A DNA stretch of 48,672 bases. It comes from Solirubrobacterales bacterium. GTDB lineage: Bacteria > Actinomycetota > Thermoleophilia > Solirubrobacterales > Solirubrobacteraceae. Location: the NCBI GenBank assembly GCA_019240655.1, contig JAFAXX010000070.1:1-48672 (forward strand), read 5' to 3'. How positions within the stretch are numbered: the first letter of the stretch is position 1; each line of letters begins with the position of its first letter. Below, one piece after another: positions 14,417 through 30,000 of this stretch. The position numbers were made by a program, and so were the translations under genes. The notes beneath the pieces are model-generated. The model was given only the letters and a program-made list of their open reading frames with translations. It was not told the DNA's origin and ran no database searches.

Positions 14417-16648
14417 TCAGCCCCGGGCGGCCACCAGCCGGTCGGCCACGCGGCTGTGTCGCCGCCCGGTGTCCGGCGTGCGGACGGCGCGAGCCAGCAC
14501 GTCGCGGGTGCCGACGATCACGGTCGCCATGCGGGCGCGGGTCACCGCCGTGTAGAGCATCTCCCGCCGCAGGAAGAAGGCGCCCGCGGCGGGATGGGCG
14601 ACGATCACCGCGACCGGCAGCTCGATCCCCTGGCCGCGGTGCACCGAGCAGGCATAGGCGAGCTTCAGGCGCTCGGCCTCCTCGGGCGCCAGGCGGAAGA
14701 TCGCTCCCTCCTCGGCCCCGAGGATCAGCGCCCCATCATCCTCGCTCGAGCCCTCCACCTCGTCGAGCATCCGCAGCAGCGTTCCGTTCATCAGCCCCAG
14801 CTCGTGGAGGTTTCGCCCGGTCATCATCAACTTGTCGCCGAGCCGCAGGCGGCCGCCGCGCAGCGGCCGGCCCTCGGGATTGAGAGCGTCGCGCAGCGCC
14901 TGGTTCAGCGCGTCGATGCCGAGCTCGCCGCGATAGACCGGCGCGAACACCTGGATGTCCGTGACCGGGTCGAGCCGGTAGTGAGCCGGGAGCCGCTCGG
15001 CGACGAGCGAGACGATCTCGGCGCGAGCGCGGATCGGGTCGGCGCGCTCGATCAGGAAGAGGTCCCGGCGCATCCCGTCGGCGAGGGTGAACGACGGCAG
15101 CTTGCCTCGCCGGATCGCGTGGGCGCCCTGCACGATCATGCTGCCGGCGGCCTGGCGGAAGATGTGGGTCAGCCGGGTGGTGGGGACGATCCCGGACGCG
15201 ATCAGCTCGGCGAACGGCTTGCCGGCACCGACCGGCGCGAGCTGATCCGCGTCGCCGACGAGGACCACGTGGGTGGTCGCACCGACCGCCCGCAGGAGCG
15301 TGACGAGCAGCTCGAGGTTCGCCATCGAGGTCTCGTCGACGATCAGCAAGTCGCATGGCAGCGGGTCGTCCGCGTCGTGCGTGGGGCCCTCTCCGGGGAT
15401 CCACCCGAGCGCGGCGTGGACGGTCTTCGCGCGGACGCCGGCGGCCTCGGTCATCCGGATCGCCGCCCGTCCGGTCGGCGCGGCCAGCAGCACGCGGGCT
15501 CCGCGGGCGCGTCCCAGCGTCGCCATGGCGCGGATCGAAGCGGTCTTGCCGGTGCCCGGGCCCCCGGTGACGAGCGACAGGCGGTGGGTGAGGGCATTGG
15601 CGACGGCGGTCCGTTGCTCACCGGTGAGGCCGTCACCGTCATTTGCCGTCCCGGGCGGATCGGGCGCCTGCCGCGGGCGCAGACGCCCGCTCCCGGGGGC
15701 GCAGAGCAGGCCGTTGACCCGCCCCGCCAGCTCCGCCTCGAGCTCCGCGGTCTGGCGCCGGTACACCCAGCGGCCGTCCCGGACGACGTCCCGCGACGCG
15801 CTCAGCGTGTCGATCAGCCCGGCGCCGGCGGGCGCGCCCGGGAGCTCGCCGGGGAGCTCGTGGAGGGGCGCGCCCGGGAGCTCGCCGGGGAGCTCGAGGA
15901 GGGGCGCGCCCGGGAGGTGGCCGAGGAGCTCGCGGAGGGAGGCCAGCAGCCCCTCGAGCGGCAGGCACGTGCTACCTCCCCGCTCGGCCTCGCTCAGCAG
16001 GTGAAGGACTCCGGCCCGGGCCCGCTCGCGGGGGTCGATCGGCCGGCCGAGTCCCCGGGCGATCTGGTCGGCGATCGCGAAGCCGACGCCGAACACGCTG
16101 GTCAGCTCGTAGGGGCGGGCGCTCACCTCGCGGTGGGCGCGGTCGCCGAGCGCCTCGTGGATCCGGGGCACGAGGTAGGCGAGGCCGTGCGGCGCGAGCA
16201 TCAGGTGAAGCCGCCGGGTCACGCGCATCCGCTCCCACGAGTGGGCCGCCTCCGCGGCGGCGGCCCGCCCGAGGCCCGCGGCGGCGAACGCGGCCTGCGG
16301 ATCGGCGTCGACCGCGTCGAGCACCCCGGAGGTCCCGTAGAGGTCGATCAGCCGGGCCGCGCGGCGTGGGCCGACACGCCGGACCCTGACCAGGTAGGCG
16401 GTCAGCGTCGCCGCATCGGTGGGCGGCAGCGGCGTTGCCGCGGACACCTTGACCTGCGGGCCGTAGCGGCGGTCCTCGACCCAGGTGCCGACCACGTGCG
16501 CGCGCTCGCGCTCCTCGAGGTGGCTGAGCGGGCCGACCAGGACGAGCGGGGCGCCGTCGGCGTCGGCCGCCTCGATCACCGCCCAGCCGGTCTCCTCGCT
16601 GGCGTAGCGGGTCCGGCGCACGGTGATCTGCGAGTCGAAGGCGACCAC
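14417..16648 (-). CDS. recD2: RecD2-type ATP-dependent 5'-3' DNA helicase
   Basis: A 743-residue SF1B helicase. The N-terminal region has an OB-like segment and helix-hairpin-helix repeats (VRVRRVGPRRAARLIDLYG), as in RecD2 proteins that lack RecBC partners. Walker A is GGPGTGKT (about residue 362), Walker B LLIVDETSM, motif III VGDADQLAPVGAGKPF, and the C-terminal 2B segment is AYACSVHRGQGIELPVAVIV with MLYTAVTRA. It unwinds DNA 5' to 3' and is linked to repair and replication-fork maintenance. A linker before the motor carries a 12-residue tandem repeat (LPGAPLxELPGE). The start is GTG 16648, at the edge of a 44-bp tandem duplication. Confidence 0.9.
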   Translation of the reverse strand: MVAFDSQITVRRTRYASEETGWAVIEAADADGAPLVLVGPLSHLEERERAHVVGTWVEDRRYGPQVKVSAATPLPPTDAATLTAYLVRVRRVGPRRAARLIDLYGTSGVLDAVDADPQAAFAAAGLGRAAAAEAAHSWERMRVTRRLHLMLAPHGLAYLVPRIHEALGDRAHREVSARPYELTSVFGVGFAIADQIARGLGRPIDPRERARAGVLHLLSEAERGGSTCLPLEGLLASLRELLGHLPGAPLLELPGELPGAPLHELPGELPGAPAGAGLIDTLSASRDVVRDGRWVYRRQTAELEAELAGRVNGLLCAPGSGRLRPRQAPDPPGTANDGDGLTGEQRTAVANALTHRLSLVTGGPGTGKTASIRAMATLGRARGARVLLAAPTGRAAIRMTEAAGVRAKTVHAALGWIPGEGPTHDADDPLPCDLLIVDETSMANLELLVTLLRAVGATTHVVLVGDADQLAPVGAGKPFAELIASGIVPTTRLTHIFRQAAGSMIVQGAHAIRRGKLPSFTLADGMRRDLFLIERADPIRARAEIVSLVAERLPAHYRLDPVTDIQVFAPVYRGELGIDALNQALRDALNPEGRPLRGGRLRLGDKLMMTGRNLHELGLMNGTLLRMLDEVEGSSEDDGALILGAEEGAIFRLAPEEAERLKLAYACSVHRGQGIELPVAVIVAHPAAGAFFLRREMLYTAVTRARMATVIVGTRDVLARAVRTPDTGRRHSRVADRLVAARG
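15831..15920. repeat. 36-bp tandem repeat inside recD2
   Basis: The motif ggcgcgcccgggag starts at 15831, 15867 and 15903, an exact 36-bp period with about 2.5 copies. On the coding strand it encodes the 12-residue unit LPGAPLxELPGE in the linker before the helicase motor. The period is a multiple of three, so copy number can vary without a frameshift. Confidence 0.9.
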
Positions 16649-17096: not shown

Positions 17097-17403
17097 CTCG
17101 TCGAAGGCCGCCTCGGCGGGAACGCCGGGGATCCGCCAGCGGATCAGCCGGCCGAGCGTGCGGGTGTCGGAGAGCCGGACGGCCTGGGCGGCGCGCCACA
17201 GCTCCTGCGCCGAAGCGGCGCTCTCACGTCGGTGTGCGACCCGCAGGCTGGGAGCGGGCAGCCAGGTGTCGAGACGGACGGACGCGATCGGGCAATCCTA
17301 AAGAGGCGGATTCGGCGGCCTTTGGGTGAGCCCGCCGGGGCGGACAAGCTGCCGGTGATCGGCGGTGAAGGGGACCGGGCGGGCGTCCCTGGAGCACCAC
17401 AAC

Positions 17404-18132
17404 GTGAATGAGACCGCGTCGCCGAGCGGTCTGCGCGCGTCGCCGCGCCGTCGCGGGCGCGATCATCGTGGCGTGCTCACGCACGGACTTGCGCCGCTCG
17501 CGCCCGTCGCCCCGCCGGTGGCCCGGGCGATCGGGGTGCCCAGGCGACTGCCGGCGGCCGCTGGAGTGGCGATCACGTTCGACGACGGCCCGCACCCGGA
17601 GGGGACCCCCGCGGTGCTCGAGGTCCTGGCCGGTGCCGGCGCGCGGGCGACCTTCTTCCTCGTCGGCGAGCAGGTCGAGCGCCGGCCGCAGCTGGCCAGC
17701 CGGATCGCCGCCGCCGGTCACGCGATCGCCCTGCACGGCCACCGCCACCGGCTGCAGCTGCGCATGTCGGCGGCCGAGGTCGCCGCCGACCTGGCCCGGG
17801 GCGCGGCGGCGATCGCCGAGGCGACCGGGCGTCGGCCGCGACTGCACCGCCCGCCCTACGGGATCTACAGCGGCGCCGGCCTGCGGGCCGCCCGTGAAGC
17901 AGGCTTCGAGCCGCTGCTGTGGTCGCGCTGGGGCAAGGACTGGCGGAGGTTCACGACGCCGCGGCGGATCGCGGCGCGCGCGACCCGGGATGTGACCGCG
18001 GGCGACGTGATCTTGCTGCACGACGCCGACTTCTACAGCTCCCGGCACTCGCACCGCAGGACCGTCGCCGCGCTGCCGACGATACTCAGCCTGCTGAGAT
18101 CCGCTGGACTCGATACCGTCTTACCGGCGTGA
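17404..18132 (+). CDS. Polysaccharide deacetylase (NodB homology domain)
   Basis: About 242 residues, carbohydrate esterase 4 fold. Motif 1 is ITFDDGPHPEGT (catalytic and metal Asp), motif 2 HGHRH (metal His pair), motif 3 RPPYGIYS, motif 4 LWSRWGKDW, motif 5 VILLHDAD. It removes N-acetyl groups from a polysaccharide or glycolipid. No signal peptide is seen, so it may act in the cytoplasm or need another start. GTG 17404 is chosen for the GGAG nine bases upstream; GTG 17365 and GTG 17473 are also in frame. It is followed by a DegT aminotransferase and a fusion protein that itself carries a degenerate deacetylase domain, so the three probably act on one sugar. Confidence 0.88.
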   Translation: MNETASPSGLRASPRRRGRDHRGVLTHGLAPLAPVAPPVARAIGVPRRLPAAAGVAITFDDGPHPEGTPAVLEVLAGAGARATFFLVGEQVERRPQLASRIAAAGHAIALHGHRHRLQLRMSAAEVAADLARGAAAIAEATGRRPRLHRPPYGIYSGAGLRAAREAGFEPLLWSRWGKDWRRFTTPRRIAARATRDVTAGDVILLHDADFYSSRHSHRRTVAALPTILSLLRSAGLDTVLPA

Positions 18133-18198: not shown

Positions 18199-19227
18199 AT
18201 GAGCACTGCAGCTGCCTCCTCGACCTCGAGCGCGCCTGACTTCGCGCGCTTCGCGATCGGCTTCGACCACCGTGACCGGGCGCGCCTGCACGCGCTGATC
18301 GACGAGGTCCTCGATTCGGAGCGCTGGTCGGAGGCGGCGATGGTCTCGCGCTTCGAAGCGGCGTGGGAGGCCTACCAGGCGGCCCCCGCGGTGGCGCTGT
18401 CGAGTTGGGCCGGCGGCGCGCTGGCGGCGCTCGGGTTCGCGGGGGTCGAGGGGGAGACCGTCCTGTGCCCGTCGAACACGTTCATGGCCACCCCGCTGGC
18501 CGCGCTGCACGCCGGCGCGGAGGTGCGCTTCGTCGATTGCAACCGCGAGGATCTCTGCATGTCGTACGCGTCGTTCGAAGAGCAGGCCGAGCGGCACCGC
18601 CCCCGGGCGGCGATCCTGGTTCACATCGGCGGACACATCGCGTTCGACAGCGAGCGGATCGCGGCCTACTGCCGGGAGCACGACATCTTCCTGCTCGAGG
18701 ACTGCGCGCACGCCCACGGCGCGTCGTGGAACGGCCGCCAGGCGGGGAGCTACGGCGACGCCGGCGTCTACTCGCTCTACGCGACCAAGACGATCTCGAC
18801 CGGGGAGGGCGGAGTGCTCGTCTCGGGCCGCCCCGAGCTGATCGACTACGCACGTGATTTCCGCAACTACGGCAAGCCCGGCTTCGAGGTCCGGGGGCTC
18901 AACTTCCGGATGAACGAGTTCACCGCCGCGCTCGGGCTCGTGCAGATCGAGCGCCTGCCGGAGATCGTGGCCTGGAAGAACGAGGTCGCGCGCGCGCACC
19001 TCGACCCCGCGTACCCGAACCGGCTCGAGCTTCCCGAGGGAATGACCTCGGGCCTCTACAAGTACGTGGTGTTCGACTGGCTCGAGCGCTCGACCGGGCG
19101 CGTCTACGACGAGCTCTGCCACCGGATCATGGGCCATGACGTGACGCTGCCGAATTCCGACTGGGCCGCGCACAACCATTCCTGCGTCCCGCTGTACTAC
19201 CGTCCGGAGCGCGGCGACCGAGAATGA
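18199..19227 (+). CDS. DegT/DnrJ/EryC1/StrS-family aminotransferase
   Basis: A 342-residue fold-type I PLP enzyme of the sugar aminotransferase family. It has LSSWAGGALAALGFAGVEGE, CPSNTFMATPLAALHAGAEV, VHIGGHIA, LLEDCAHAHGASWNGRQAGS (PLP-binding Asp) and YSLYATKTISTGEGGVLVS with the Schiff-base lysine. RGLNFRMNEFTAALGLVQIE is also typical. It should transaminate a keto-sugar nucleotide to an amino sugar. It is somewhat shorter than the usual 370-400 residues. Its TGA overlaps the ATG of the next gene (ATGA), so it is coupled to the epimerase-glycosyltransferase fusion. Confidence 0.9.
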   Translation: MSTAAASSTSSAPDFARFAIGFDHRDRARLHALIDEVLDSERWSEAAMVSRFEAAWEAYQAAPAVALSSWAGGALAALGFAGVEGETVLCPSNTFMATPLAALHAGAEVRFVDCNREDLCMSYASFEEQAERHRPRAAILVHIGGHIAFDSERIAAYCREHDIFLLEDCAHAHGASWNGRQAGSYGDAGVYSLYATKTISTGEGGVLVSGRPELIDYARDFRNYGKPGFEVRGLNFRMNEFTAALGLVQIERLPEIVAWKNEVARAHLDPAYPNRLELPEGMTSGLYKYVVFDWLERSTGRVYDELCHRIMGHDVTLPNSDWAAHNHSCVPLYYRPERGDRE

Positions 19228-21935
19228 GGGTTCTGGTCACAGGCGGATCGGGCTTCATCGGCTCCCACGTGGTCGACAAGCTGCGTGCGCGCGGCCACGA
19301 GCCGGTCATCTACGACCTCCGCCCGTCGCCGTGGCACGAGCGGGGAACGGTCGACACCGTGCTCGGGTCGATCACCGACCGCGAGGCGCTGGAGCGCGCA
19401 CTGCACAGCTGCGACGCGGTCGCGCACCTGGCCGCGGTGGCCGACGTCAACGACGTGCACGCCTCACCGGAGGACGCCGAGCGCATCAACGCCCGCGGCA
19501 CCGTCTCGGTGCTCGAGGCCGCGCGCCGCGCCGGCGTCCAGCGGATCGTCTACGCCAGCACGATCTGGGTCTACTCCGACTGCCGCGAGGACGCCGTGGA
19601 CGAGGACACCTTGTTGCCGGCGCCGAGCCATCTGTACACGAGCACCAAGCTGGCCGGCGAGCTCTACTGCAAGGCCTACCAGGAGCTCTACGGGATCGAC
19701 TACACGATCCTCCGCTTCGGCATCCCGTACGGCCCGCGGGCGCGGGAGGCGGCCGTGATCCCGGCGTTCGTGAACAAGGCGCTGCGGGGCGAGCCTCTGA
19801 CGTTGGCCGGCGACGGCTCGCAGTCACGCCGGTTCGTCTACGTGGAAGACCTCGCCGACGGTGTCGCCCGCGGGCTGAGCGACCTGGCGGCGAACCGCGT
19901 CTACAACCTGGCCAGCGACGAGAACGTGACGATCAAGCAGATTGCCGAGACCGTCCAGCACCTGGTCGGGAACGTCTCGATCGAGTACACGCCGGCCCGC
20001 CCAGGCGACTTCGGCGGCAAGGTCGTCTGCTCGCGGCGTGCGCTGGCGGAGCTCGGCTGGAGCGCCTCGACGCCGTTTTCCGAGGGCGTTCGCCGGTACG
20101 TCGAGTGGCGCCGCGAGCAGGCCGCGCTGGCCGCTGCGCGCGAGGCGCAGGCGGTGATTCCGGCCGGAGAGCCGGACTCCGAGTCACGGCCGCGCCAGGT
20201 GCTGATCATCTCGGCGGACATCGGCGAGGGCCACGACCTGCCTGCCCGCGCCGTCGCCCGCGAGTTCCGCGACGAGGATCCCGATGCGCAGGTCTCGATC
20301 GTCAACGGGCTGCCCGCCATGGGCTGGCTGCTGACCCGCCTGCTGCGTGAGAACTCGGCGTTCATGTTCCGCTGGGTCCCGTGGTGGTTTGACTTCCAGT
20401 ACCGCCTGTTCATGAACTTCGCTCCCACGCGGTGGCTGGCCCGGTGGCTGCTGACCGCGCTCGGCCACCGCGGGCTGATGCGCCTGATCCGGGCCCACAA
20501 CCCGGACCAGATCGTCTCCACCTACCCCGGCGTCACCGCGGTGCTCGGCGAGTTACGCCGGCGCGGGCGCCTCGACGTGCCGTGTTATTCGTCGATCACC
20601 GATCTCGCCGGGCTGCACTTCTGGGCCCATCCCGGCATAGACCTGCACTTCATCACCCACCCGGAGTCGGCCGAGGAGGTCGAGGAGATCGCCGGTCCGG
20701 GCAGCGTCCGCTGGGCCAAGCCGCCGAGCTCCCCCGCGTTCCTGGCCGCGCGCTCGCGCGCCGATGCCCGCCGCGCGCTCGCGTTGCCGCCCGACGGCCG
20801 CGTGATCGCCGTCTCCGGCGGTGGGTGGGGGGTCGGCGACCTGCTCGGCGCCACCGCGGTCGCCCTTCAGGTGCCCGACGCGATCGTGCTGTGTCTGTGC
20901 GGGCGCAACGACAAGCTGCGCGCGCGCGTGACCCAGCGCTTCGGCGATGAGCCGCGCCTGCGCGTGATGGGCTTCACCGACCGGATGAGCGACGTGCTCG
21001 CGGCCACCGACGCGCTGATTCACTCGAGCGCCGGACTGACCGTCCTCGAGGCGATCATCCGCGGCTGCCCGGTCGTCTCCTATGGCTTCGGATACGGTCA
21101 CGTGCGGGCGTCGAACGCGGCTCTCGAGCGCTTCGGCCTCGCCCAGGTGGCGCGCGAGGAGGCCGAGCTCCGTCCCGCGGTCGAGCGCGCCCTGGAGCAG
21201 CGGCCCGAGCCCGACGGCTCGTTCGCTCGCCGCCCGTCGACCGCGTCCCTGATCCTCGGCGACGAGCGGCGCGCGCGTCAGCTCCCGCGCTGGCGGGTGC
21301 GCACCGCGCGCGCGGTCACCGCTACCGCGGCCGTCGTCGCCGCCATCGGGTGGACGCTGACCGCCGGCGCCTCCTACACGGTCGTCTCGCGGTTCGCGCA
21401 CATGCGCCCGGTTACCGCGGTGTCGACCGGGCGGCCCGAGGTCGGGGTGCTGATCGACGCCCCGGTCGGACAGGTCCCCGAGCTCGCCGGGACGCTCTCG
21501 GCCCTCGGGATCCATGCCTCGTTCACGGTCGGCCAGGCGTATCCGGCGGCGGTCCTCAGCGTGTACGGCGATCAGACCCTCCCGCGCCTGCCCACCGGGG
21601 GGCTCGTCCGCTGGCTGCGCACACGCGCGCAGCTGCGCCGGCTGATCCGCGAGATGGGGCTGCAGCGCCACTTCCTGTATGCGTCCAACGGGCCGAGCGT
21701 CGGGCAGTGGTGGCTGGCCCACGGCGCCGGCGGCCGGCTGGTGGCCGGTGCGGTGAAGGTCGACGACGCCGGCGACGCGCTCGGACCGCTGCGCCCCGGC
21801 GAGGTCGTGGAGCTGACGCTGACCGGTCCGGCGGAGGTGCAGCTGGTCGCCGCGCTGAGCCGCCAGCTCGCCAACGAGCACCTGACCGCGGTCCCGGTCG
21901 GCCGGCTGATGCGGGACGCCGGCAGCTCTGCCTAG
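19224..21935 (+). CDS. Fusion: NAD-dependent sugar epimerase + MGDG synthase-like glycosyltransferase + degenerate deacetylase domain
   Basis: A 903-residue, three-part protein. Residues 1-310 are an extended-SDR nucleotide-sugar epimerase/dehydratase: VTGGSGFIGSH, and the active-site Y138-x3-K142. Residues about 324-690 resemble MGDG synthase/MurG-type GT-B enzymes: ISADIGEGHDLPARAVAREF, AVSGGGWGVGDLLG, and LIHSSAGLTVLEAI, the nucleotide-sugar-binding region. A hydrophobic segment follows at about 695-718 (VTATAAVVAAIGWTLTAGAS). The last 165 residues (EVGVLIDAPVGQVPELAGTL onward) look like a NodB deacetylase that has lost TFDDGP and the HxxxH metal pair. The first two parts should be cytoplasmic and the last extracytoplasmic. 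It could make a nucleotide sugar and transfer it to a lipid. All domain assignments are by eye. Confidence 0.82.
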   Translation: MRVLVTGGSGFIGSHVVDKLRARGHEPVIYDLRPSPWHERGTVDTVLGSITDREALERALHSCDAVAHLAAVADVNDVHASPEDAERINARGTVSVLEAARRAGVQRIVYASTIWVYSDCREDAVDEDTLLPAPSHLYTSTKLAGELYCKAYQELYGIDYTILRFGIPYGPRAREAAVIPAFVNKALRGEPLTLAGDGSQSRRFVYVEDLADGVARGLSDLAANRVYNLASDENVTIKQIAETVQHLVGNVSIEYTPARPGDFGGKVVCSRRALAELGWSASTPFSEGVRRYVEWRREQAALAAAREAQAVIPAGEPDSESRPRQVLIISADIGEGHDLPARAVAREFRDEDPDAQVSIVNGLPAMGWLLTRLLRENSAFMFRWVPWWFDFQYRLFMNFAPTRWLARWLLTALGHRGLMRLIRAHNPDQIVSTYPGVTAVLGELRRRGRLDVPCYSSITDLAGLHFWAHPGIDLHFITHPESAEEVEEIAGPGSVRWAKPPSSPAFLAARSRADARRALALPPDGRVIAVSGGGWGVGDLLGATAVALQVPDAIVLCLCGRNDKLRARVTQRFGDEPRLRVMGFTDRMSDVLAATDALIHSSAGLTVLEAIIRGCPVVSYGFGYGHVRASNAALERFGLAQVAREEAELRPAVERALEQRPEPDGSFARRPSTASLILGDERRARQLPRWRVRTARAVTATAAVVAAIGWTLTAGASYTVVSRFAHMRPVTAVSTGRPEVGVLIDAPVGQVPELAGTLSALGIHASFTVGQAYPAAVLSVYGDQTLPRLPTGGLVRWLRTRAQLRRLIREMGLQRHFLYASNGPSVGQWWLAHGAGGRLVAGAVKVDDAGDALGPLRPGEVVELTLTGPAEVQLVAALSRQLANEHLTAVPVGRLMRDAGSSA

Positions 21936-22090: not shown

Positions 22091-23053
22091 CTACCAGTGC
22101 ACGCCGGGAGTCGCCCGCGCGAACGCGCGCTGCTCGGGCGTCGGCTCCTCGGTCTCCTTCGTGGTGTCGCTCTCGCCCTCCGGAAACAGCTGGTAGGCGC
22201 GGTTGACCACGAGGTCCTGGGCGCCGGGAGCGATCGCGTAGCTCAGCTGGCCGATGCTCCCGATCGGGGTGGCGATCCGCTTCGGTCGCTTGCGGATCGC
22301 CTCCGTGATCAGGTCTGCGGCCTCGTCGGGGCTGAGCGTCGGAAAGCGGTCATAGATCTTCGTCGGGGCAATCATCGGCGTGCGGACGAGCGGCATGTAG
22401 ACGGTCGTGATGTGAACGCCGTCGCCGATCACCTCTGGGCCGACCGAGCGAGCGAAGGCGTCGAGCGCGGCCTTCGAGGCGACGTAGGCTGAGAACCTCG
22501 GCGTGTTCATCTGCAGCCCGATCGTCGAGATGTTGATGATGTGGCCCGACTGCTGCTCGCGCATTTTGGGCAGCAGGTCGAGGATCAGCTTGACCGGCGC
22601 GAAGTAGTTGAGCTGCATCGTCCGCTGGAAGTCGTGGAAGCGGTCATAGGCGCGGTCGATCGAGCGCCGGATCGACTTCCCTGCGTTGTTGACCAGGATG
22701 TCGACCGCCTCGTGCTGCTCGAGCACCTCCGCCGCCATCCGGTCGATGTCGTCGAGGTCGTTGAGGTCGCAGCGGTGGACGTAGGCGATTCCGTCCTTGG
22801 CCTCGATCTCCTCCCTGACCTGCTCGAGCTGGTCCTGGCGGCGGGCGACCAGCAGCACCGTCCCGCCGGCGTTGCCGATCTGAAGCGCTGCGGCCTTGCC
22901 GATTCCCGACGACGCGCCGGTGATGAGCACGTTTCGCCCCGTGACCGCGTCTTCGAGCGACGGCGCGAGCGCGCCACCGCCGATCGGAATCCGGTGGCTG
23001 AACGCCCGCAGAGTCCGTACGCCCTGGGCGGCGAGGTCGACCGGGTTGGCCAT
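22091..23053 (-). CDS. SDR family oxidoreductase, fatty acyl-CoA reductase-like
   Basis: About 320 residues. The Rossmann motif is ITGASSGIGKAAA, then NNAGKS and the active-site segment ISTIGLQMNTPRFSAYVASK (Ser, Tyr-x3-Lys). A long C-terminal tail follows (PKRIATPIGSIGQLSYAIAP and on to VHW). The N-terminal leader before the Rossmann fold and the C-terminal extension resemble the SDR part of mycobacterial fatty acyl-CoA reductases and related lipid-metabolism SDRs. It is probably an NADPH-dependent acyl or alcohol reductase in the cytoplasm. The Met at 23053 (MANPVDLAAQGVRTLRAF) is preferred; upstream in-frame codons look non-coding. It is divergent from imuB, 94 bp away. Confidence 0.85.
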   Translation of the reverse strand: MANPVDLAAQGVRTLRAFSHRIPIGGGALAPSLEDAVTGRNVLITGASSGIGKAAALQIGNAGGTVLLVARRQDQLEQVREEIEAKDGIAYVHRCDLNDLDDIDRMAAEVLEQHEAVDILVNNAGKSIRRSIDRAYDRFHDFQRTMQLNYFAPVKLILDLLPKMREQQSGHIINISTIGLQMNTPRFSAYVASKAALDAFARSVGPEVIGDGVHITTVYMPLVRTPMIAPTKIYDRFPTLSPDEAADLITEAIRKRPKRIATPIGSIGQLSYAIAPGAQDLVVNRAYQLFPEGESDTTKETEEPTPEQRAFARATPGVHW

Positions 23054-23131
23054 TGGCTGCCAACCTACCACCGCGAGCGCCCAGGCGATATGTCCTCCCC
23101 GCGGCGCCACGGATTCCGTCCGGCCGGCTTG

Positions 23132-23145
23132 CGAACATACGTTCG
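23132..23145 (+). promoter_or_regulatory. LexA (SOS) box before imuB
   Basis: CGAACATACGTTCG: perfect CGAAC/GTTCG arms with 4 central bases, the form of actinobacterial and Bacillus-type LexA sites. It ends two bases before the imuB ATG, so no separate ribosome-binding site fits between box and start. Identical arms recur at dnaE2. Confidence 0.88.
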
Positions 23146-23147
23146 TG

Positions 23148-24368
23148 ATGGCGCTGATCGTATGCCTCTTGCTTCCGCGTTTTCAGCTCACCACCGCGGC
23201 GGGCGGCCGCGACGAGCTGCTGCGCGGCCCGGCGGCGCTGGCCCCGGAACCGGGCGGATCCCAGCAGGTTGGCGAGGTCAGCCTGGCCGCGGAGGCGTTC
23301 GGGGTCGATCCGGGGATGCGCCTCGGCGAGGCGCTCGCCCGTTGCCCGGCGCTCAGCCTGATCCCGCCCGATCCGGCGGGCGTGGCCGACGCCTGGGAGC
23401 GGCTCCTGGTGCGTCTGGAGTCGATCGGGGCGGCGGTCGAGCCGGAACGACCCGGGCTGGTGTGCTTCGACGCCCGTGGTCTCCTGCGCCTGCACGGCAC
23501 GCGGGTCGGAGGCGACGCCGATCGGGTCAAGGGCGTGGTCGAGGCGGCGCGACGAGCGGTGCGAGCACCCGCGCGCTACGGCGTGGCGCCGGCTCGCTTC
23601 GCCGCGGTGGCGGCGGCGGCGCGGGCGAGGGCGCGCCGGCCGGTGATCGTCGCGGGCGGTCGCCGCGAGGCTCGGGCTTTCCTGGCTCCCCTTCCGGTTG
23701 CTTTGCTCCGCGCCCGGCCCGCCCTGGCCGAGCTGCCGGAAGCGCTCGAGCGCCTCGGCATCCGGACGCTCGGCGAGCTGGCCGCCCTCGCCCCGCCGGC
23801 GCTGGCCGACCGGTTCGGAACCGCCGGCGTGCTCGCCCACGAGCTGGCCAGCGGAGGCGACGGCGCGCTGCGTCCGCGCCCCGCGGGCGAGTTCCTGCGC
23901 GAGTTGCTCGAGTTGCCCGAGGCCGCCTCGGGCCTGCAGCTGGAACGGGGGCTGGGGGTGTTGATCGACCGTCTGCTGGCCCGGCGCGAGCGGCGGGGCC
24001 GGACGCTGCGCGCTGTCGTGCTGTCGGCCGCGCTGGTCGAGCGGGGAGGCACGTGGCGCGCCCCGGTGGTGTTCCGGGAGGCCCTGGCCGACCCGGTGCG
24101 GATGCGGCTCGCGCTGAGTCCCCGCCTGGCGTTGATGCCGGCGCCGGCCGAGGAGCTCAGGCTCGCCGTGGAGCGCTTTGGGCCGCCGGCGAGCGAACAG
24201 CGCGCGCTGCTCAAGGATCCCGCCGCGGCCCGGCGTGAGCGCCTGCGGGAAGCGATCCGGCAGACTCGCGCCGCCGCCGGTCCGGATGCCGCGCTGCGCG
24301 TGCTCGAGGTCGATCCGGGCTCGCGGTTCCCGGAGCGACGAGCCCTGCTGACGCCGTTTGACGGATAG
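23148..24368 (+). CDS. imuB: ImuB-type catalytically inactive Y-family polymerase homologue
   Basis: A 406-residue protein starting MALIVCLLLPRFQLTTAAGG. It has the Y-family layout, but the acidic catalytic segments are replaced: the usual SIDEA position reads VCFDARGL. The palm/fingers part includes RYGVAPARFAAVAAAARARA; a helix-hairpin-helix follows (ALERLGIRTLGELAALAPPALADRF), and the C-terminus is ALRVLEVDPGSRFPERRALL. ImuB proteins are scaffolds linking the beta clamp, ImuA' and DnaE2 during SOS mutagenesis. No QLPLW-like clamp motif was obvious. A LexA box abuts the start codon. It is followed 9 bases later by a DUF6504-like gene; dnaE2 lies 2.7 kb downstream and no imuA is seen. Confidence 0.88.
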   Translation: MALIVCLLLPRFQLTTAAGGRDELLRGPAALAPEPGGSQQVGEVSLAAEAFGVDPGMRLGEALARCPALSLIPPDPAGVADAWERLLVRLESIGAAVEPERPGLVCFDARGLLRLHGTRVGGDADRVKGVVEAARRAVRAPARYGVAPARFAAVAAAARARARRPVIVAGGRREARAFLAPLPVALLRARPALAELPEALERLGIRTLGELAALAPPALADRFGTAGVLAHELASGGDGALRPRPAGEFLRELLELPEAASGLQLERGLGVLIDRLLARRERRGRTLRAVVLSAALVERGGTWRAPVVFREALADPVRMRLALSPRLALMPAPAEELRLAVERFGPPASEQRALLKDPAAARRERLREAIRQTRAAAGPDAALRVLEVDPGSRFPERRALLTPFDG

Positions 24369-24377
24369 GGGTAAGCG

Positions 24378-24620
24378 ATGAGCGGACCTCGTCGTCTCTC
24401 CGTCCCCCGCCGGGTGGCAGTGCGTGCCGGCGAGGACGGCCTGCCGCTCGAGGTCGACGGACGCGCCGTCGACGGTGTGCGCGAGTCGTGGCTGCTCGAG
24501 GACCGCTGGTGGACCGAGCGCCCGCTGCGCCGGCGCTACTGGGAGCTGGTCACGGTGTGCGGGCGCAACGAGGTGGTCTTCCACGACCTGCTGAGCGGCC
24601 GGTGGTGGCGGCAGCGGTGA
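24378..24620 (+). CDS. DUF6504-like small protein linked to imuB
   Basis: An 80-residue protein whose second half, VDGVRESWLLEDRWWTERPL then RRRYWELVTVCGRNEVVFHD, is very characteristic: small Trp/Arg-rich proteins of this type sit next to imuB in many actinobacteria (assigned to DUF6504 from memory). No enzymatic motif is visible. It starts 9 bases after imuB, so it is almost certainly in the same SOS-controlled transcript. Its TGA overlaps a possible GTG start of the next gene. It may be an accessory of the ImuB/DnaE2 mutasome, which is an inference from context. Confidence 0.8.
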   Translation: MSGPRRLSVPRRVAVRAGEDGLPLEVDGRAVDGVRESWLLEDRWWTERPLRRRYWELVTVCGRNEVVFHDLLSGRWWRQR

Positions 24621-24646
24621 GCGAGCGCCGACGTAAACTCCGCCGG

Positions 24647-25795
24647 GTGAGCCCCATCGATCCCGGCCCCACCGCGGTTGGAACGTGGAGCGGCGGTCGC
24701 TTCATGCACTTTGGCGAGCCGCTCGACGACGAGCGCTTCCTCACCCTCATCGCCCCCGACGAGAACATCCGCACCGTGATCACCGCCGACGTGTACGGTG
24801 CCGGCGAGGCCGACCGGATGCTCGGGCGGGCGATCGCCGGTCATCCGCGCGAGCGGCTGTGCGTCGTCGGAGCCGTCGGCCACGACTTCTACGCGGGCGA
24901 ACGCGACGGCGCCCGCGGCTTTCCCCGCTTCACCGATTCGCGCCTGCGGGCGCCCGCGCAGTACGCCGATTACCTCCGCATGGCGACTGAGCGAAGCCTC
25001 GAGCGCTGTGGGGTCGACCGCTTCGATCTTCTGCTGCTGCACAACCCGGATCGGACCGGCTACACCAGCGAGGCGGTGTGGAGCGGCATGGCGGCCGTGC
25101 GCGAAGCGGGCCTGACCCGCCTGATCGGCGTCGCCCCCGGCCCGGCCAACGGATTCACGCTCGACCTGATCGACTGCCTCGAGCGCTTCGGCGCGGTGAT
25201 CGACTGGGCGATGATCATCTTCAACCCGCTCGAGCCCTGGCCGGGCGAGCTATGCCTCGGCGCCGCCGCGGCCGCGAAGGTGAAGGTGATCACGCGAGTG
25301 GTCGACTACGGCGGTCTGTTCTTCGACGATCTTCTGCCCGGGCAGGAACTGCTGCCCCGCGATCACCGGAGCTTCCGGCCCGCCGGGTGGATCGAGGCCG
25401 GCCGGGAGCGACTCGACGGAATGCGACCGATCGCCCGGCGCGCCGGGCTCACGATGATCCAGCTCGCCTGTCAGTGGAACCTCGCCCACGATCCCGTGGC
25501 CTGCGTGGTCCCGACGCTTATCCAGGAGGCCGGAGCCGCCGCCCGCCCGGTGGAGGACAAGCGCGCGGAGGTGGCGGCGCTGCCGGCCGAGATCCGGCTC
25601 GGGCCGGACGACGTCGAGGCCATCCGTTTACTCGGCGACAACACCGGCACCATGGCGCTCAAGGGCGCGAGCCCCGAGCACACCGGCGAAGAGCGGCCGG
25701 ATCGCTGGAGTCTCGACGAACGGCTCGCACTCGTCGCTCGCCGCTGGCGGATCGAGCCCGAGCGCGACCTCGCGCAGGCGGTCGCGCCGCTGTGA
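24647..25795 (+). CDS. Aldo/keto reductase
   Basis: About 382 residues with the AKR TIM-barrel pattern: RTVITADVYGAGEADRMLGR (strand 2 with the Asp/Tyr pair), RFDLLLLHNPDR, AVREAGLTRLIGVAPGPANG, FNPLEPWPGE and MIQLACQWNLAHDPVACVVP, the NADPH-binding end. It should reduce aldehydes or ketones with NADPH; the substrate is unknown. GTG 24647 is chosen, but GTG 24617 overlaps the previous stop (GTGA) and would couple it to the imuB operon. The last 17 codons plus stop are duplicated in tandem into the space before the next gene. Confidence 0.83.
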   Translation: MSPIDPGPTAVGTWSGGRFMHFGEPLDDERFLTLIAPDENIRTVITADVYGAGEADRMLGRAIAGHPRERLCVVGAVGHDFYAGERDGARGFPRFTDSRLRAPAQYADYLRMATERSLERCGVDRFDLLLLHNPDRTGYTSEAVWSGMAAVREAGLTRLIGVAPGPANGFTLDLIDCLERFGAVIDWAMIIFNPLEPWPGELCLGAAAAAKVKVITRVVDYGGLFFDDLLPGQELLPRDHRSFRPAGWIEAGRERLDGMRPIARRAGLTMIQLACQWNLAHDPVACVVPTLIQEAGAAARPVEDKRAEVAALPAEIRLGPDDVEAIRLLGDNTGTMALKGASPEHTGEERPDRWSLDERLALVARRWRIEPERDLAQAVAPL

Positions 25796-25849
25796 TCTGG
25801 CGGATCGAGCCCGAGCGCGACCTCGCGCAGGCGGTCGCTGCCCTGTGAG
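25744..25849. repeat. 53-bp tandem duplication of the aldo/keto reductase 3' end
   Basis: Copy 1 (25744-25796) contains the last codons and TGA of the reductase. Copy 2 (25797-25849) is identical for its first 42 bases, differs at about three positions near the end, and ends at the GTG start of the GFA gene. The TGTGA stop/start-like junction is present in both copies. The period is not a multiple of three. Confidence 0.95.
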
Positions 25850-26270
25850 CTCGCACAACCGTCACCTGACCGGCGGGTGCAATTGCGGGGCGGTTCGCTT
25901 CGAGGTGGCCGCGCCGCTCGTGTCCGCCAGCTACTGCCACTGCCGGCGCTGCCAGCGCCGTACCGGGACGGCGGCGTCGGCGAACGGGCGCACCGAGCCG
26001 GGTAGCTTCCGGGTCCTCACGGGGGAGGACCGCCTCCGCGCGTGGAAGCCGGAGGGCGGGTGGGAGAAGTGGTTCTGCGGCGATTGCGGGTCGGCGCTGT
26101 TCAGCCGTAGCCCCGAGGACGCCTCGCAGGTGGGCGTGCGTCTGGGCGCGCTCGACGACGATCCCGGCGTGCGCCCGGGCGCCCGGCAGTTCGTCGCCTA
26201 CGCCGCCCCCTGGGAGCCGATCCCCGACGACAACCTGCCCCGGTTCCCCGAGGGCCGCGTCGTCGACTAG
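25845..26270 (+). CDS. GFA family (CENP-V/Gfa-like) zinc protein
   Basis: A 141-residue protein with the family's cysteine pattern: GGCNCGAVRFEV, SYCHCRRCQRRTGTA and WFCGDCGSALFSR, binding one structural and one putative catalytic zinc. The family is named after glutathione-dependent formaldehyde-activating enzyme; most members are of unknown substrate and actinobacteria normally lack glutathione, so a thiol-adduct role is only a guess. GTG 25845 lies at the end of the duplicated 3' tail of the upstream reductase. A reductase beside a GFA protein within an SOS-associated region could suggest aldehyde detoxification (inference). Confidence 0.88.
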   Translation: MSSHNRHLTGGCNCGAVRFEVAAPLVSASYCHCRRCQRRTGTAASANGRTEPGSFRVLTGEDRLRAWKPEGGWEKWFCGDCGSALFSRSPEDASQVGVRLGALDDDPGVRPGARQFVAYAAPWEPIPDDNLPRFPEGRVVD

Positions 26271-26303
26271 CGCATCGTGAACCGCGCGCCTTCGGAGAGC
26301 AGG

Positions 26304-26954
26304 CTAGTCGTGTTCTTCCTCTCGCCGGTTCCCGTTTCTGTGGGCTCCTGGCACTGACCGGTGGTCACCAGACGCCTTGGTGACGTCGTAAACGAGTTGG
26401 CTTTTGGTCAGGTTGGTCGGTTTCTTGACCCCGAGCGTCGCCGCCAGCACCACTAGCTCCTGTCGCGTGCGACAGCCGAGGCTTCCGCCGCTGAGCTGCC
26501 ATTCCTGGTCGCCGGCTGGGCGTCGGCTGACCGCTTGCCGCTCAGCCTCACCGTTTAGTTCGAGCGCGCGATCGGTGACCTGCCCCCAGCAGCTTGGGTC
26601 GTGCGATCTGCTCGCGGGCGCCTGCGCCTCGTCCACGAGCCGCCTCGCCTCAATCAGCTTCCTCGCCGCCTCCTTGACCCGCTGGCGGGCTCTCCGCTTT
26701 GCCGCCACCGCCTCGCGCAGAGCCGCTTCGGTCTCGCGATCGACTTCCGCCCGAAGGTGCCGCTGCGCTTGCTCCAGTTCTCTGAGCCGGGCCTGACCTC
26801 GCTCGGCTACCTGGCGGGCATATTCACAGCAGGCCTTGGCTTCACGTGCGGCGTGCATGGCCCGATCGTCGGCCTCCCATCCGCAATCCTCGACCGGCGC
26901 GGCGTCGGTCGAGGGCTGCTCATGGAGATTCGTGCTTGCTCGCGCTTCCGACAT
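26304..26954 (-). CDS. Coiled-coil protein with C-terminal Rho_N/SAP-like segment
   Basis: A 216-residue protein. Residues about 35-110 are a long charged, Ala/Glu/Arg-rich coiled coil (RQVAERGQARLRELEQAQRH and onward). The C-terminal part CRTRQELVVLAATLGVKKPT then LTKSQLVYDVTKAS matches the helix-extended-helix pattern of Rho_N/SAP-like nucleic-acid-binding domains. Base composition is lower in GC than in the neighbours, hinting at transfer or relaxed codon choice. It lies antisense to the surrounding SOS genes, and a TATACT hexamer sits upstream. The function is unknown; DNA binding is an inference. Confidence 0.6.
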   Translation of the reverse strand: MSEARASTNLHEQPSTDAAPVEDCGWEADDRAMHAAREAKACCEYARQVAERGQARLRELEQAQRHLRAEVDRETEAALREAVAAKRRARQRVKEAARKLIEARRLVDEAQAPASRSHDPSCWGQVTDRALELNGEAERQAVSRRPAGDQEWQLSGGSLGCRTRQELVVLAATLGVKKPTNLTKSQLVYDVTKASGDHRSVPGAHRNGNRREEEHD

Positions 26955-26981
26955 GAATCTCAGCCCCTCGCTCTAGGCAAC

Positions 26982-26987
26982 AGTATA
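26982..26987 (-). promoter_or_regulatory. Possible -10 hexamer for the coiled-coil gene
   Basis: Read on the minus strand, this is TATACT, within an unusually AT-rich stretch (gtatatac) 28 bases before the start codon at 26954. No convincing -35 is visible. The remaining bases up to the dnaE2 LexA box hold no gene that I can support. Confidence 0.35.
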
Positions 26988-27056
26988 TACGTTTGAGACA
27001 ATAGCATCTCACATTGGGACCGTAGAGACCCGACTTGTATCCCGGGGAATCGAGTG

Positions 27057-27070
27057 CGAACATATGTTCG
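27057..27070 (+). promoter_or_regulatory. LexA (SOS) box overlapping the dnaE2 start
   Basis: CGAACATATGTTCG is a perfect 14-bp palindrome with the actinobacterial LexA arms. It contains the ATG at 27064 and its last base is the first base of the alternative start GTG 27070. LexA bound here would sit on the translation start region. No Shine-Dalgarno sequence can be placed between box and either start. Confidence 0.9.
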
Positions 27071-30000
27071 TGGCCGGGTACGTCGAGCTTCACTGCCACT
27101 CCGCGTTCTCGTTCCTGGATGGGGCGTCGCTGCCGGACGAGCTGGTTCCGGCCGCGCTCGAGCTCGGCTACCGGGCGCTGGCGCTGACCGACCACAACTC
27201 GGTCTCGGGATCGATGGAATTCGCCGTTACCGCGCGGGCCCTCGGGCTGCGACCGATCCACGGCGCGGAGATCGACCTCTCCGACGGCCGGCATCTCACC
27301 CTGCTGGTGCATGACGCCGACGGCTGGTCGAACCTGTGCCGGATCCTCACCCGGGCGCACGCCCACACGCGCGAGAAGCCGGGGCCACCCACGCTTCCGT
27401 TCGTCGCTCTGGAAACGGTCCTCGAGCATGCCGGCGGTCTCGTCTGCCTGAGCGGCTGCGCCCGACGCGGGGTCCACGACGAGCCGACCGTGCGCCGGCT
27501 GCTCGAGGCGTTCGGGCCCGAGCGGCTGAGGATCGAGCTCCAGCGGCCGTTCCAGCGGGACGACCGCGCGCGCAACCGCCGGCTGGCCGCCCTGGCGGGG
27601 CGGCTCGGACTCGCCTGCGTGGCCACGGGCAACGTCCACGCCCACACACGCGCCCGGGCGCCGCTTCAGGACGCGCTCGTGGCGATCCGCCTGCATACCA
27701 CGCTGGATGCCTCCGAGCCCGAGCGGCGCGGCAACTTCAGCCACGTGCTCGCCCCGCCGGAGGCGATGGCGGCCCGGTTCCCCGAGCATCCCGACGCCGT
27801 GGCGGAGACCGAGCGGCTGGCCGAGAGCCTGCGCTTCTCGCTCACCAGCGATCTCGGCTACCGCTACCCGGGGGCGGACGACGAACGCGCTATGCGGCAG
27901 CTCGGCGAGCTCTGCCGGCACCGGCTGCACGAGCGGTACGGAGGCAGCAGCGCGGGCGTGCGGGACACCGCCCAGGCGCGCCTGCAGGAGGAGCTGCGGA
28001 TCATCGAGGCGCTCGACCTGCCCGGGTTCTTCCTCCTCCACCACGATCTGCTCGAGCTCGCCCGCGAGGTCGCGGTCGAGGTGCGCGGACCGCACACCGC
28101 CCGCGCGCTGCTGCCGCCCGGGCGGGGACGGGGCTCGAGCGTCTCCTCGATCGTCTGCTACCTCACCGGGCTCTCCCACGTCGACCCGATCGCCACCGAG
28201 CTCCTGATCGGCCGGTTCCTGAACGAGGAGCTGACCGCGCTGCCCGACATCGACCTCGACTTTCCCCGGGACATCCGGGAGAAGCTGATCCCGCGCATCC
28301 ACGAGCGCTACGGGCACGACCGCTCGGCGCTGGTCGCCGCCTTCCCCACCTACCGCGCCCGCGGCGCGATCCGCGAGCTCGGCAAGGCGCTGGGGCTCCC
28401 ACCGGGTGAGATCGAGCGGGTGGCGCGCGGGAGCGAGGGCTGGGACGCGCGGCGAGTGGGGGACGACATCGAGGCGGCGTTCGGCGCGCACCCCGGCACG
28501 AGCGCGCAGCACGCATCCGGCCGCTGGGCCTGGCTGGTTCGCCTCGCCGCCGAGGCGCACGGGCTCCCCCGCCACCTCTCTCAGCACTCCGGCGGGATGA
28601 TCGTCGCCACCCGTCCGCTCGTCGACTGCTGCCCGATCGTGCCGGCGGCGATGGAGGGGCGCCAGATCGTCCAGTGGGACAAGGACTCCTGCTCGGACGC
28701 CGGCTTTCTGAAGATCGACCTGCTCGGGCTCGGCATGCTCTCCGCCGTCGAGCGCGCGGTCGAGCTGATCTCGCGGACCCGCGGCGAGCGCATCGACCTT
28801 TCGACGATCCCCTATGACGACCCGGCCACCTACCGGGCGATCCAGGCGGCCGACACCACCGGCGTGTTCCAGATCGAGAGCCGCGCCCAGATGCAGTCGC
28901 TCTACCGCACTCGGCCGGAGACCCTCCAGGACATCACGATCCAGGTGGCGATCGTGCGGCCCGGCCCGATCCAGGGCGGCGCGGTCAACCCGTACATCGC
29001 CCGCCGCCAGCGCCTGCGGGTCGATCCCGACTATCAGGTCCCCTACGAGCATCCCTCGCTCGAGCCGGTGCTCCGCGAGACGCTCGGCACGATCATCTTC
29101 CAGGATCAGGTGCTGGAGGTGGCGATCGCCTTCGCGGGCTTCTCGCCGGGCGAGGCCGAGGGATTGCGGCGGGCGATGAGCCGCAAGCGCTCAGAGGCGG
29201 CGATCGAGGCCTACCACAAGCGCTTCGTCGCCGGGGCGAGGCGCCGCCACGGCGTCGACGAGGCGACGGCCGAGCGCGTGTTCTCGATGATCCAGGGCTT
29301 CTCTGGCTTCGGCTTTCCCAAGGCCCACGGCGCGGCGTTCGGGTTGCTCGCCTATCAGTCGACGTGGTTGCGCGTCCACTACGGCCCCGAGTTCCTGTGC
29401 TCGCTGCTGAACGAACAGCCGATGGGCTTCTATCCCCCCGACGCGCTGGTCCACGAAGCGCAGCGGCGGGGGATCGAGGTGCTGGCGCCCGACGTCAACC
29501 GCAGCCAGGCCGAATGCGACCTCGACGAGCAGGGCCGGGTCCGCATCGGGCTCGGCTACGTCCGCAGCGTCCGCGAGCAGGAGGTCAACGACCTGGTCGC
29601 CGCACGAGAGCGAGGAGGGCGCTTCCGCAGCCTGTCCGACCTGGCCTCGCGTTCGGGCTCGAGCGCTCCCTCGCTCGAGCTGCTGGCCTGGTCGGGAGCG
29701 TGCGATTCGCTCGTGCCGCCGGCGACCCTTCCCGGGTCGGCGCGCCGTATCGCCCTGTGGCAGCTCGGTGTCGCCACGCCGGGGCGGAAGGTCCCCGGCG
29801 GCACGCAGCTGGCGCTGCCGCTCGATCTCCCGGCGCCGCCCGCGCTCACCGGCCTCTCCGACTGGGAGACGATGCTGGCCGACTACGGAACCATGGGCCT
29901 GACCGCCCGCGCTCATCCCCTCGCCCTGCTGCGCGAGCGCCTGCCGGCGGATGCGGTGCGCAGCTGCGACCTCGCGACCCTGCCCCACGGAACGCGGGTG

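What the first reader, a model, noticed from the sequence alone, without database searches (positions are those of the whole stretch)
19224..21935. Single protein joining sugar epimerase, MGDG synthase-like glycosyltransferase and a degenerate deacetylase domain
A nucleotide-sugar-modifying domain, a GT-B glycolipid glycosyltransferase, a transmembrane helix and an extracytoplasmic NodB-like domain without metal ligands are fused in one 903-residue chain. I know of no described enzyme with this order. It could channel a modified sugar directly onto a lipid and use the inactive deacetylase fold to bind glycan outside.
Basis: partly seen in the sequence, partly recalled or inferred. Interest (0 to 1): 0.75.

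Follow-up and report, generated by a model that had tools for sequence, protein, structure and literature searches.

The report
Fused sugar epimerase–glycosyltransferase with pseudo-deacetylase
A soil bacterium of the order Solirubrobacterales makes one long protein that joins a sugar-nucleotide enzyme, a glycolipid-type sugar transferase and a membrane-anchored dead copy of a deacetylase; relatives show that the fusion is real and part of a conserved four-component pathway that probably makes an amino-sugar glycolipid.

Summary
The fusion is real. ORF 19224–21935 is one intact 903-aa chain: extended SDR "epimerase" (E, 1–305), MGDG-synthase-like GT-B transferase (G, 322–665), a helix at 689–713, and a C-terminal domain (N, 728–903) whose model (pLDDT 87.7) has 14 PDB matches at E≤1e-3, all CE4/NodB deacetylases; the metal-ligand motifs are gone. 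It is no assembly artefact: E-G-N is one ORF in 21 of 27 same-genus genomes, including two complete Conexibacter chromosomes. The gene is third in an operon after an intact NodB deacetylase and a DegT aminotransferase. In 299 genomes of the class, G goes with that NodB (58 both, 8 and 7 alone) and E with DegT (33 both, 3 and 3 alone, 260 neither), mostly nested inside. In a four-genome clade without DegT, E has lost its catalytic Tyr/Lys (two), has an altered motif (one) or is gone (one). Best reading: E+DegT make an amino-sugar nucleotide, G puts a sugar on a membrane lipid, NodB deacetylates it, and N is a pseudo-deacetylase that binds the product or docks a partner. Donor, acceptor and product are unknown. 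New variant of a known kind.

The parts
17365..18132 (+). NodB/CE4 polysaccharide deacetylase gene, ligand motifs intact (start codon uncertain)
   Evidence: Pfam Polysacc_deac_1 4.9e-32. Among 67 module NodB sequences (window included) 66 match the FDDGP-type, 67 the HxxxH and 59 the RPPYG-type pattern; alignment of 30
18199..19227 (+). DegT/DnrJ/EryC1 sugar aminotransferase gene; overlaps the fusion gene by 4 bases
   Evidence: Pfam 3.4e-58; PLP-lysine motif TK.....GEGG in 40 of 42 module DegT ORFs, the other two being overlapping L121 fragments
19224..21935 (+). Fusion gene, 903 aa (E-G-TM-N)
19224..20138 (+). E: extended SDR / epimerase domain, residues 1–305, with GxxGxxG, S112-T113, Y138, K142
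   Evidence: (best match UDP-glucose 4-epimerase 4zrm, TM 0.91 to the target)
20187..21218 (+). G: MGDG-synthase-like GT-B glycosyltransferase, residues 322–665
   Evidence: (SGGGWGVGD loop invariant but for one nearly invariant position in 21 sequences)
21288..21362 (+). predicted membrane helix, residues 689–713, preceded by an Arg-rich stretch (N-in, C-out by inference)
   Evidence: helix; hydrophobic segment between G and N in 40 of 54 G..N proteins at cut-off 1.4; the window's own helix was not flagged at cut-off 1.6
21405..21932 (+). N: degenerate NodB/CE4-fold domain, residues 728–903

Best explanation
The protein is the membrane-anchored assembly point of a four-component amino-sugar glycolipid pathway of Thermoleophilia. 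Core (22 genomes of the class sample have G and NodB without E or DegT): G transfers a sugar from a nucleotide donor to a membrane lipid at the inner face, and the separate, intact NodB enzyme removes an N-acyl group from that sugar. Accessory pair: E and the DegT aminotransferase make or interconvert an amino-sugar nucleotide that serves as donor or as a second sugar. In the window's lineage E is fused to G, so the donor is made next to the transferase. The helix crosses the membrane once and carries N, a NodB fold without metal-ligand motifs, to the outside, where it binds the glycolipid head group or docks a partner rather than catalysing. Shown here: architecture, folds, intact or degenerate motifs, operon, conserved linkage, co-occurrence and co-decay of E with DegT. 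Inferred: every chemical step, the lipid acceptor, the order of E and DegT, the role of N, and on which side of the membrane NodB acts.
For: Operon NodB–DegT–E-G-N with a 4-base overlap of the last two. In 80 G-bearing loci (the best 80 of 112), module NodB lies somewhere in the held DNA in 67, and E with DegT: 40 both, 6 E only, 1 DegT only, 33 neither. In 299 class genomes E/DegT 33/3/3/260, G/NodB 58/8/7/226, all four in 32. The three DegT-only genomes fit contig ends (G004: E cut; G526, G581: DegT at a contig start). Natural co-loss: in one clade (SH-aLRT 99 in a quick tree) no module DegT is found genome-wide at E≤1e-60, and E has Y138R/K142R (L110, complete genome), Y138R/K142G (L105), an altered STVSVY motif with Tyr/Lys kept (L106), or is absent (L107); every other aligned E row keeps Y138/K142. 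E and G occur fused, as co-directional overlapping genes (L111, L112, L122, L123), and on opposite strands side by side or with NodB or DegT between. N folds as NodB, lacks MT1 and MT2 pairs in all 55 aligned, yet the frame is kept: N dN/dS 0.27–0.61 in 15 of 16 pairs.
Against: No substrate, acceptor or product is shown. E passes no cut-off among the 25 best NCBIfam models shown, so its reaction is unknown; it lacks the Asp/Glu after the active-site Thr that I recall for 4,6-dehydratases, so it may not make the keto-sugar that DegT needs. Two genomes keep a catalytically broken E fused to G, so E may also serve as a mere scaffold. Many relatives do without N (EG, E|G and G forms). N is the least conserved domain (46–65% identity in L009–L022, 36–40% in L023–L024; one pair at dN/dS 1.01; synonymous differences 0.37–0.60 per site). 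Fisher p-values ignore shared ancestry, and I chose the cut-offs. Eight G genomes lack the NodB and seven NodB genomes lack G at those cut-offs; G003 has its NodB on another contig than the fusion and G011 has none closer than 42%. G020 (L106) is only 69% complete. NodB's side of the membrane is unresolved. MT1/MT2 positions in N were set from sequence alignment by eye, not by structure superposition.
Confidence: 0.55

Rival explanations
1. E is an epimerase that acts after amination: DegT (with a keto-sugar from another dehydratase) makes an amino-sugar nucleotide, and E only inverts a carbon before G uses it, so E hands its product straight to G.
For: E is structurally closest to UDP-Glc and UDP-GlcNAc 4-epimerases, has S/T-Y-K but not the dehydratase Asp/Glu (motif recalled), and is the domain fused to G, whereas no DegT fusion was seen in the loci traced.
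Against: E stays intact almost only where DegT is present (G086 and G020 are exceptions in incomplete genomes), which fits either order. No dehydratase is among the eight neighbours that I traced.
Confidence: 0.35
2. G and NodB work on a polymer or peptidoglycan-like lipid precursor instead of a glycerolipid; E and DegT make a sugar for that polymer.
For: CE4 enzymes are described as deacetylating many kinds of polysaccharide (PMC10967932, abstract start and passages seen); the GT28 family also holds MurG (recalled).
Against: G's N-terminal half matches PF06925 MGDG synthase, and both its PDB sequence matches at E≤1e-3 are diacylglycerol glycosyltransferases. No polymerase or flippase is among the eight neighbours traced; others were not looked at.
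Confidence: 0.2
3. N retains catalysis by another route (without metal) rather than being a binding domain.
For: The fold is kept, and a non-metal-dependent relative of NodB, the PuuE allantoinase, is described (PMC10967932, passage seen).
Against: Of 55 sequences only P71 and G143 (model numbering) are invariant, so no polar residue is; the column taken as the first Asp is Asp in 22 of 55.
Confidence: 0.05
4. Assembly join or frameshift produced the fusion.
For: The window comes from a 191-contig assembly.
Against: 21 of 27 same-genus genomes, two of them complete chromosomes, carry it.
Confidence: 0.01

Closest known systems
MGDG synthase / processive diglucosyl-diacylglycerol synthase (GT28, PF06925)
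   Same: Domain G: N-terminal MGDG_synth domain, GT-B C-terminal half; donor loop and the Glu after it align with MGD1 (roles recalled)
   Different: Fused to an SDR in front and to TM-N behind; equivalog cut-off not reached (106 of 500 bits); no acceptor known
CE4/NodB deacetylases and CE4 pseudoenzymes (2vyo; PDB titles of 6hm9, 6hpa, 7bkf)
   Same: N has the NodB fold; loss of ligands in 2vyo, read there as probable inactivity, is described (PMC10967932, passage seen)
   Different: N is the membrane-tethered tail of a glycosyltransferase and is degenerate in all 55 sequences aligned, with an intact NodB gene nearby in most loci
Arn (L-Ara4N) pathway: ArnA SDR, ArnB DegT, ArnC transferase, ArnD NodB-family deformylase (recalled; paper listing only)
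   Same: Same four kinds of enzyme in one locus; ArnA shows that such pathways fuse domains
   Different: G is GT28 not GT2 (recalled for ArnC); no formyltransferase among the neighbours traced; E lacks the decarboxylase Glu (recalled); hosts without lipid A (recalled)

Membership tests
Extended SDR NAD-dependent epimerase/dehydratase | GxxGxxG, active-site S/T and YxxxK | tested here: met
   G7, G10, G13, S112, T113, Y138, K142 in the window; Tyr/Lys lost only in G012 and G024 among the aligned rows
dTDP-glucose 4,6-dehydratase | NCBIfam equivalog cut-off, and Asp-Glu after the active-site Thr (recalled) | tested here: not met
   137.8 of 365.1 bits; I114-W115 in the window
UDP-glucose 4-epimerase GalE (TIGR01179) | Equivalog cut-off | tested here: not met
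   123.7 of 262.3 bits, although the fold is closest to such enzymes
MGDG synthase family (PF06925) | Pfam gathering score | tested here: met
   44 against 25 bits
Diglucosyl diacylglycerol synthase (PRK13609) | Equivalog cut-off | tested here: not met
   106 of 500 bits
MGDG synthase family (PF06925) | Transfer of hexose from UDP-sugar to diacylglycerol | not testable with these tools
   needs enzyme assay
CE4/NodB, domain N | NodB barrel fold | tested here: met
   14 of 14 PDB hits at E≤1e-3 are CE4, TM 0.61–0.70 to the query
CE4/NodB, domain N | MT1 Asp-Asp and MT2 His-x-x-x-His metal ligands | tested here: not met
   no F-D/N-D motif in 55 of 55; DDG strings in 5 of 55, at residues 53 or 131, not at the first strand; HxxxH strings in 18 of 55, none within the MT2-equivalent residues 66–81; 14 of 55 have some His there, 3 of them two. 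Equivalence set by alignment, not superposition
CE4/NodB, domain N | Pfam PF01522 match | tested here: not met
   absent among matches of all 55 members up to E 1
CE4/NodB, gene 17365–18132 | Pfam PF01522 and ligand motifs | tested here: met
DegT/DnrJ/EryC1 sugar aminotransferase | Pfam PF01041 and PLP lysine | tested here: met
Arn pathway | ArnA formyltransferase domain, GT2 ArnC, ArnT | not tested
   not searched; resemblance recalled only

The most novel reading that the evidence does not exclude
A lineage-specific amino-glycolipid factory in which donor synthesis and lipid glycosylation are covalently joined, with an extracytoplasmic pseudo-deacetylase that acts as product sensor or as docking site for the true deacetylase: a new way to couple the two sides of the membrane in glycolipid synthesis, yielding a lipid not yet described in Thermoleophilia.
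Probability: 0.3. Interest if true: 0.7.

Novelty: new variant of a known kind. Interest (0 to 1): 0.5.

Why it matters
It gives a poorly studied soil lineage a concrete, testable glycolipid pathway. The fused, split, inverted and decayed versions amount to a natural set of experiments that already points to E and DegT as one functional unit. The conserved pseudo-deacetylase on a transferase raises the question of what dead CE4 domains do. My library searches listed no paper whose title or abstract start describes this protein or module; subscription journals are not in that library, and most listed papers were not opened.

Tried and rejected
Pfam on N: nothing in the window's copy, and no family matched by more than 2 of 55 members. 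Profile search against PDB sequences gave six hits, best E 0.18, two of them a polysaccharide deacetylase and a chain named as a xylanase at E 0.5–0.6. Profile-profile comparison with the module's own NodB was collinear but weak (probability 25%, E 0.00077 for one comparison). Only the structure comparison settled the fold. Plasmid records: 0 of 1747 matched records cover 80% of the query, so no full-length copy there. Rfam: nothing in the window at gathering scores. Whether E and G fused once or several times could not be decided: a single origin is not rejected (AU p 0.466; 34 of 83 rows counted as fused, L107 included as a derived form, six distant long-branch rows left out). A hydropathy scan at cut-off 1.6 did not flag the window's own helix; I rely on the model and on relatives. 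Lipid literature for the order (listing; [quoted passage not shown] it neither supports nor excludes an amino-glycolipid. PMC6544083 (passages) names no component of the module.
Full report
OBSERVATION. ORF 19224–21935 on the + strand reads 903 codons without an internal stop. Residues 1–305 (E) are an extended SDR: Pfam Epimerase 2.8e-56, with GxxGxxG, S112-T113, Y138 and K142. Residues 322–665 (G) are a GT-B glycosyltransferase of the MGDG-synthase family: PF06925 at 44 bits against a cut-off of 25, sequence matches to chloroplast MGD1 and to a processive diacylglycerol glucosyltransferase of known structure. A helix at 689–713 follows. Residues 728–903 (N) hit no Pfam family. An AlphaFold model from 55 aligned sequences has mean pLDDT 87.7 and pTM 0.84, and all 14 PDB matches at E≤1e-3 are CE4/NodB deacetylases. 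The full-length model (pLDDT 89.3, pTM 0.52) shows folded domains with a low-confidence E–G linker at 311–318.

NOT AN ARTEFACT. Of 27 same-genus genomes searched, 21 have E, G and N in one ORF; in G004 and G005 the gene is cut by a contig end, G017 has G-N only, and G015, G018 and G021 have no match better than 3.7e-41, which is the level of other SDRs. The fusion is also in G050, another genus, and two of the 21 are complete chromosomes, Conexibacter sp. DBS9H8 and S30A1.

N IS CONSISTENTLY DEGENERATE. The CE4 motifs are MT1 (two Asp) and MT2 (two His) (PMC10967932, passages seen). In 55 aligned N domains no F-D/N-D motif remains; DDG strings (5 of 55) and HxxxH strings (18 of 55) lie elsewhere; none of the HxxxH lies in the stretch equivalent to MT2, where 14 of 55 have some His and 3 have two; the column taken as the first Asp is Asp in 22 of 55. 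The equivalence rests on alignment, not on superposition. Only two columns are invariant. N evolves faster than E and G, yet stays open and is mostly under purifying selection: over 16 pairs dN/dS is 0.10–0.27 (E), 0.13–0.25 (G), 0.27–0.61 (N, 15 pairs) and 1.01 in one. N is therefore best read as a maintained pseudo-deacetylase domain.

NEIGHBOURHOOD. Upstream and co-directional lie an intact NodB deacetylase (17365–18132) and a DegT aminotransferase (18199–19227) whose end overlaps the start of the fusion by four bases. Eight window neighbours were traced through the relatives' loci. NodB is somewhere in the held DNA in 67 of the 80 loci kept of 112 found, mostly next to G but far off in a few (such as L120, L160). 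Several of the 13 misses are short contigs; of two misses checked genome-wide, G003 has the gene on another contig and G011 has none closer than 42%. E and DegT come together: 40 loci have both, 33 neither, 6 E only (L098, L105, L106, L110, L111, L119), 1 DegT only (L162).

ARCHITECTURES. In those 80 loci: G-N 26, E-G-N 24 (L098 with E cut), E and G as separate genes 12, G alone 8, E next to G-N 4, E-G 4, and two with a domain in another frame (L114, L121). Six E-G proteins without N were checked and all keep a strongly hydrophobic C-terminal stretch. E-N without G occurs in G073 and G086 (L037, L078). The quick tree of G puts most G-N forms outside a clade of fused, split and oppositely placed E/G forms; one origin of the E-G fusion is not rejected.

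CLASS-WIDE TEST. In 299 genomes drawn evenly from the class (own genome included), with cut-offs that I chose (E and DegT 1e-60, G 1e-50, NodB 1e-45), E is in 36, DegT in 36, G in 66, NodB in 65. E and DegT: both 33, E only 3, DegT only 3, neither 260. G and NodB: both 58, alone 8 and 7, neither 226. E without G: 2 (G086, G544). All four: 32; G+NodB without E or DegT: 22. The Fisher values ignore ancestry. The three DegT-only genomes fit contig ends (E cut in G004; DegT at the start of its contig in G526 and G581). Of the three E-only genomes, G012 and G024 have lost E's catalytic Tyr and Lys, and G086 is a MAG of 84% completeness.

CO-DECAY. A clade of four (L105, L106, L107, L110; SH-aLRT 99) lacks DegT in the locus and genome-wide at E≤1e-60 (the genomes are 92, 69, 90 and 93% complete). 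In it E is Y138R/K142G (L105), altered beside an intact Tyr/Lys pair (L106), absent (L107), or Y138R/K142R (L110). G, N and NodB stay. This ties E to DegT and separates both from the G–NodB core.

HOW IT PROBABLY WORKS. Core: G glycosylates a membrane lipid and NodB de-N-acylates the sugar. Accessory: E and DegT supply an amino-sugar nucleotide. Fusion puts donor supply beside the transferase. The helix, with Arg-rich residues before it, should place N outside (inference). N probably binds the head group or a partner. NodB's side is open: 14 of 65 module NodBs have a hydrophobic stretch (cut-off 1.6) before the catalytic domain, and the window's own has none there even at 1.4. Whether E acts before or after DegT is also open; E resembles 4-epimerases most and lacks the dehydratase residues I recall.

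KNOWN OR NEW. Each domain belongs to, or has the fold of, a known family. The order E-G-TM-N, the conserved pseudo-deacetylase on a transferase and the four-component module did not turn up in searches (open-access library; titles and abstract starts for most hits, passages of four papers). The nearest analogy is the Arn pathway (recalled). I file it as a new variant of a known kind.

Noticed in passing
L037:784-2475 and L078:4450-6210 (genomes G073, G086): E fused directly to an N-type degenerate NodB domain with no G between; G073 has its G, DegT and NodB on another contig, C51. N has changed partners.
   Followed up: partly
L074, L076, L079, L080: Stand-alone E proteins with long hydrophobic C-terminal tails (several helices by eye, not computed), as if E were membrane-tethered in another way.
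   Followed up: no
L083:5277-6773 (G016 = Conexibacter sp. DBS9H8): Second E copy (72–73%) in a genome that also has the fusion; no module DegT, NodB or G in the 12 kb held around it.
   Followed up: no
L114:2547-5226 and L121:6851-9353: N (L114) or the start of E (L121) lies in a different, overlapping frame from the rest; sequencing error or real frameshift.
   Followed up: no
L059 (G276, outside the class): An E-like ORF (47%) overlaps the start of a G-like ORF (27%) on the same strand: the E–G pairing may be older than the class.
   Followed up: no
L141: Record titled 'Chlamydiae bacterium' carries a typical Solirubrobacterales-type G-N gene with NodB; probably a mislabelled or mixed bin.
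   Followed up: no
window 22896-30375 +: Y-family polymerase-like gene (IMS 2.7e-8) and a DNA polymerase III alpha-type gene, with an aldo/keto reductase and a GFA gene between; resembles an ImuB–DnaE2 mutagenesis cassette (name recalled). The first three recur downstream of the fusion in several relatives; the alpha-type gene was not traced.
   Followed up: partly
window 14417-16648 -: RecD2-type helicase gene, found upstream of the operon in many relatives of the genus.
   Followed up: partly
G010:C447:654-1685, G009:C330:24112-25287, G006:C107:18780-19844: Second, 40–42% identical G copies in fusion-bearing genomes.
   Followed up: no
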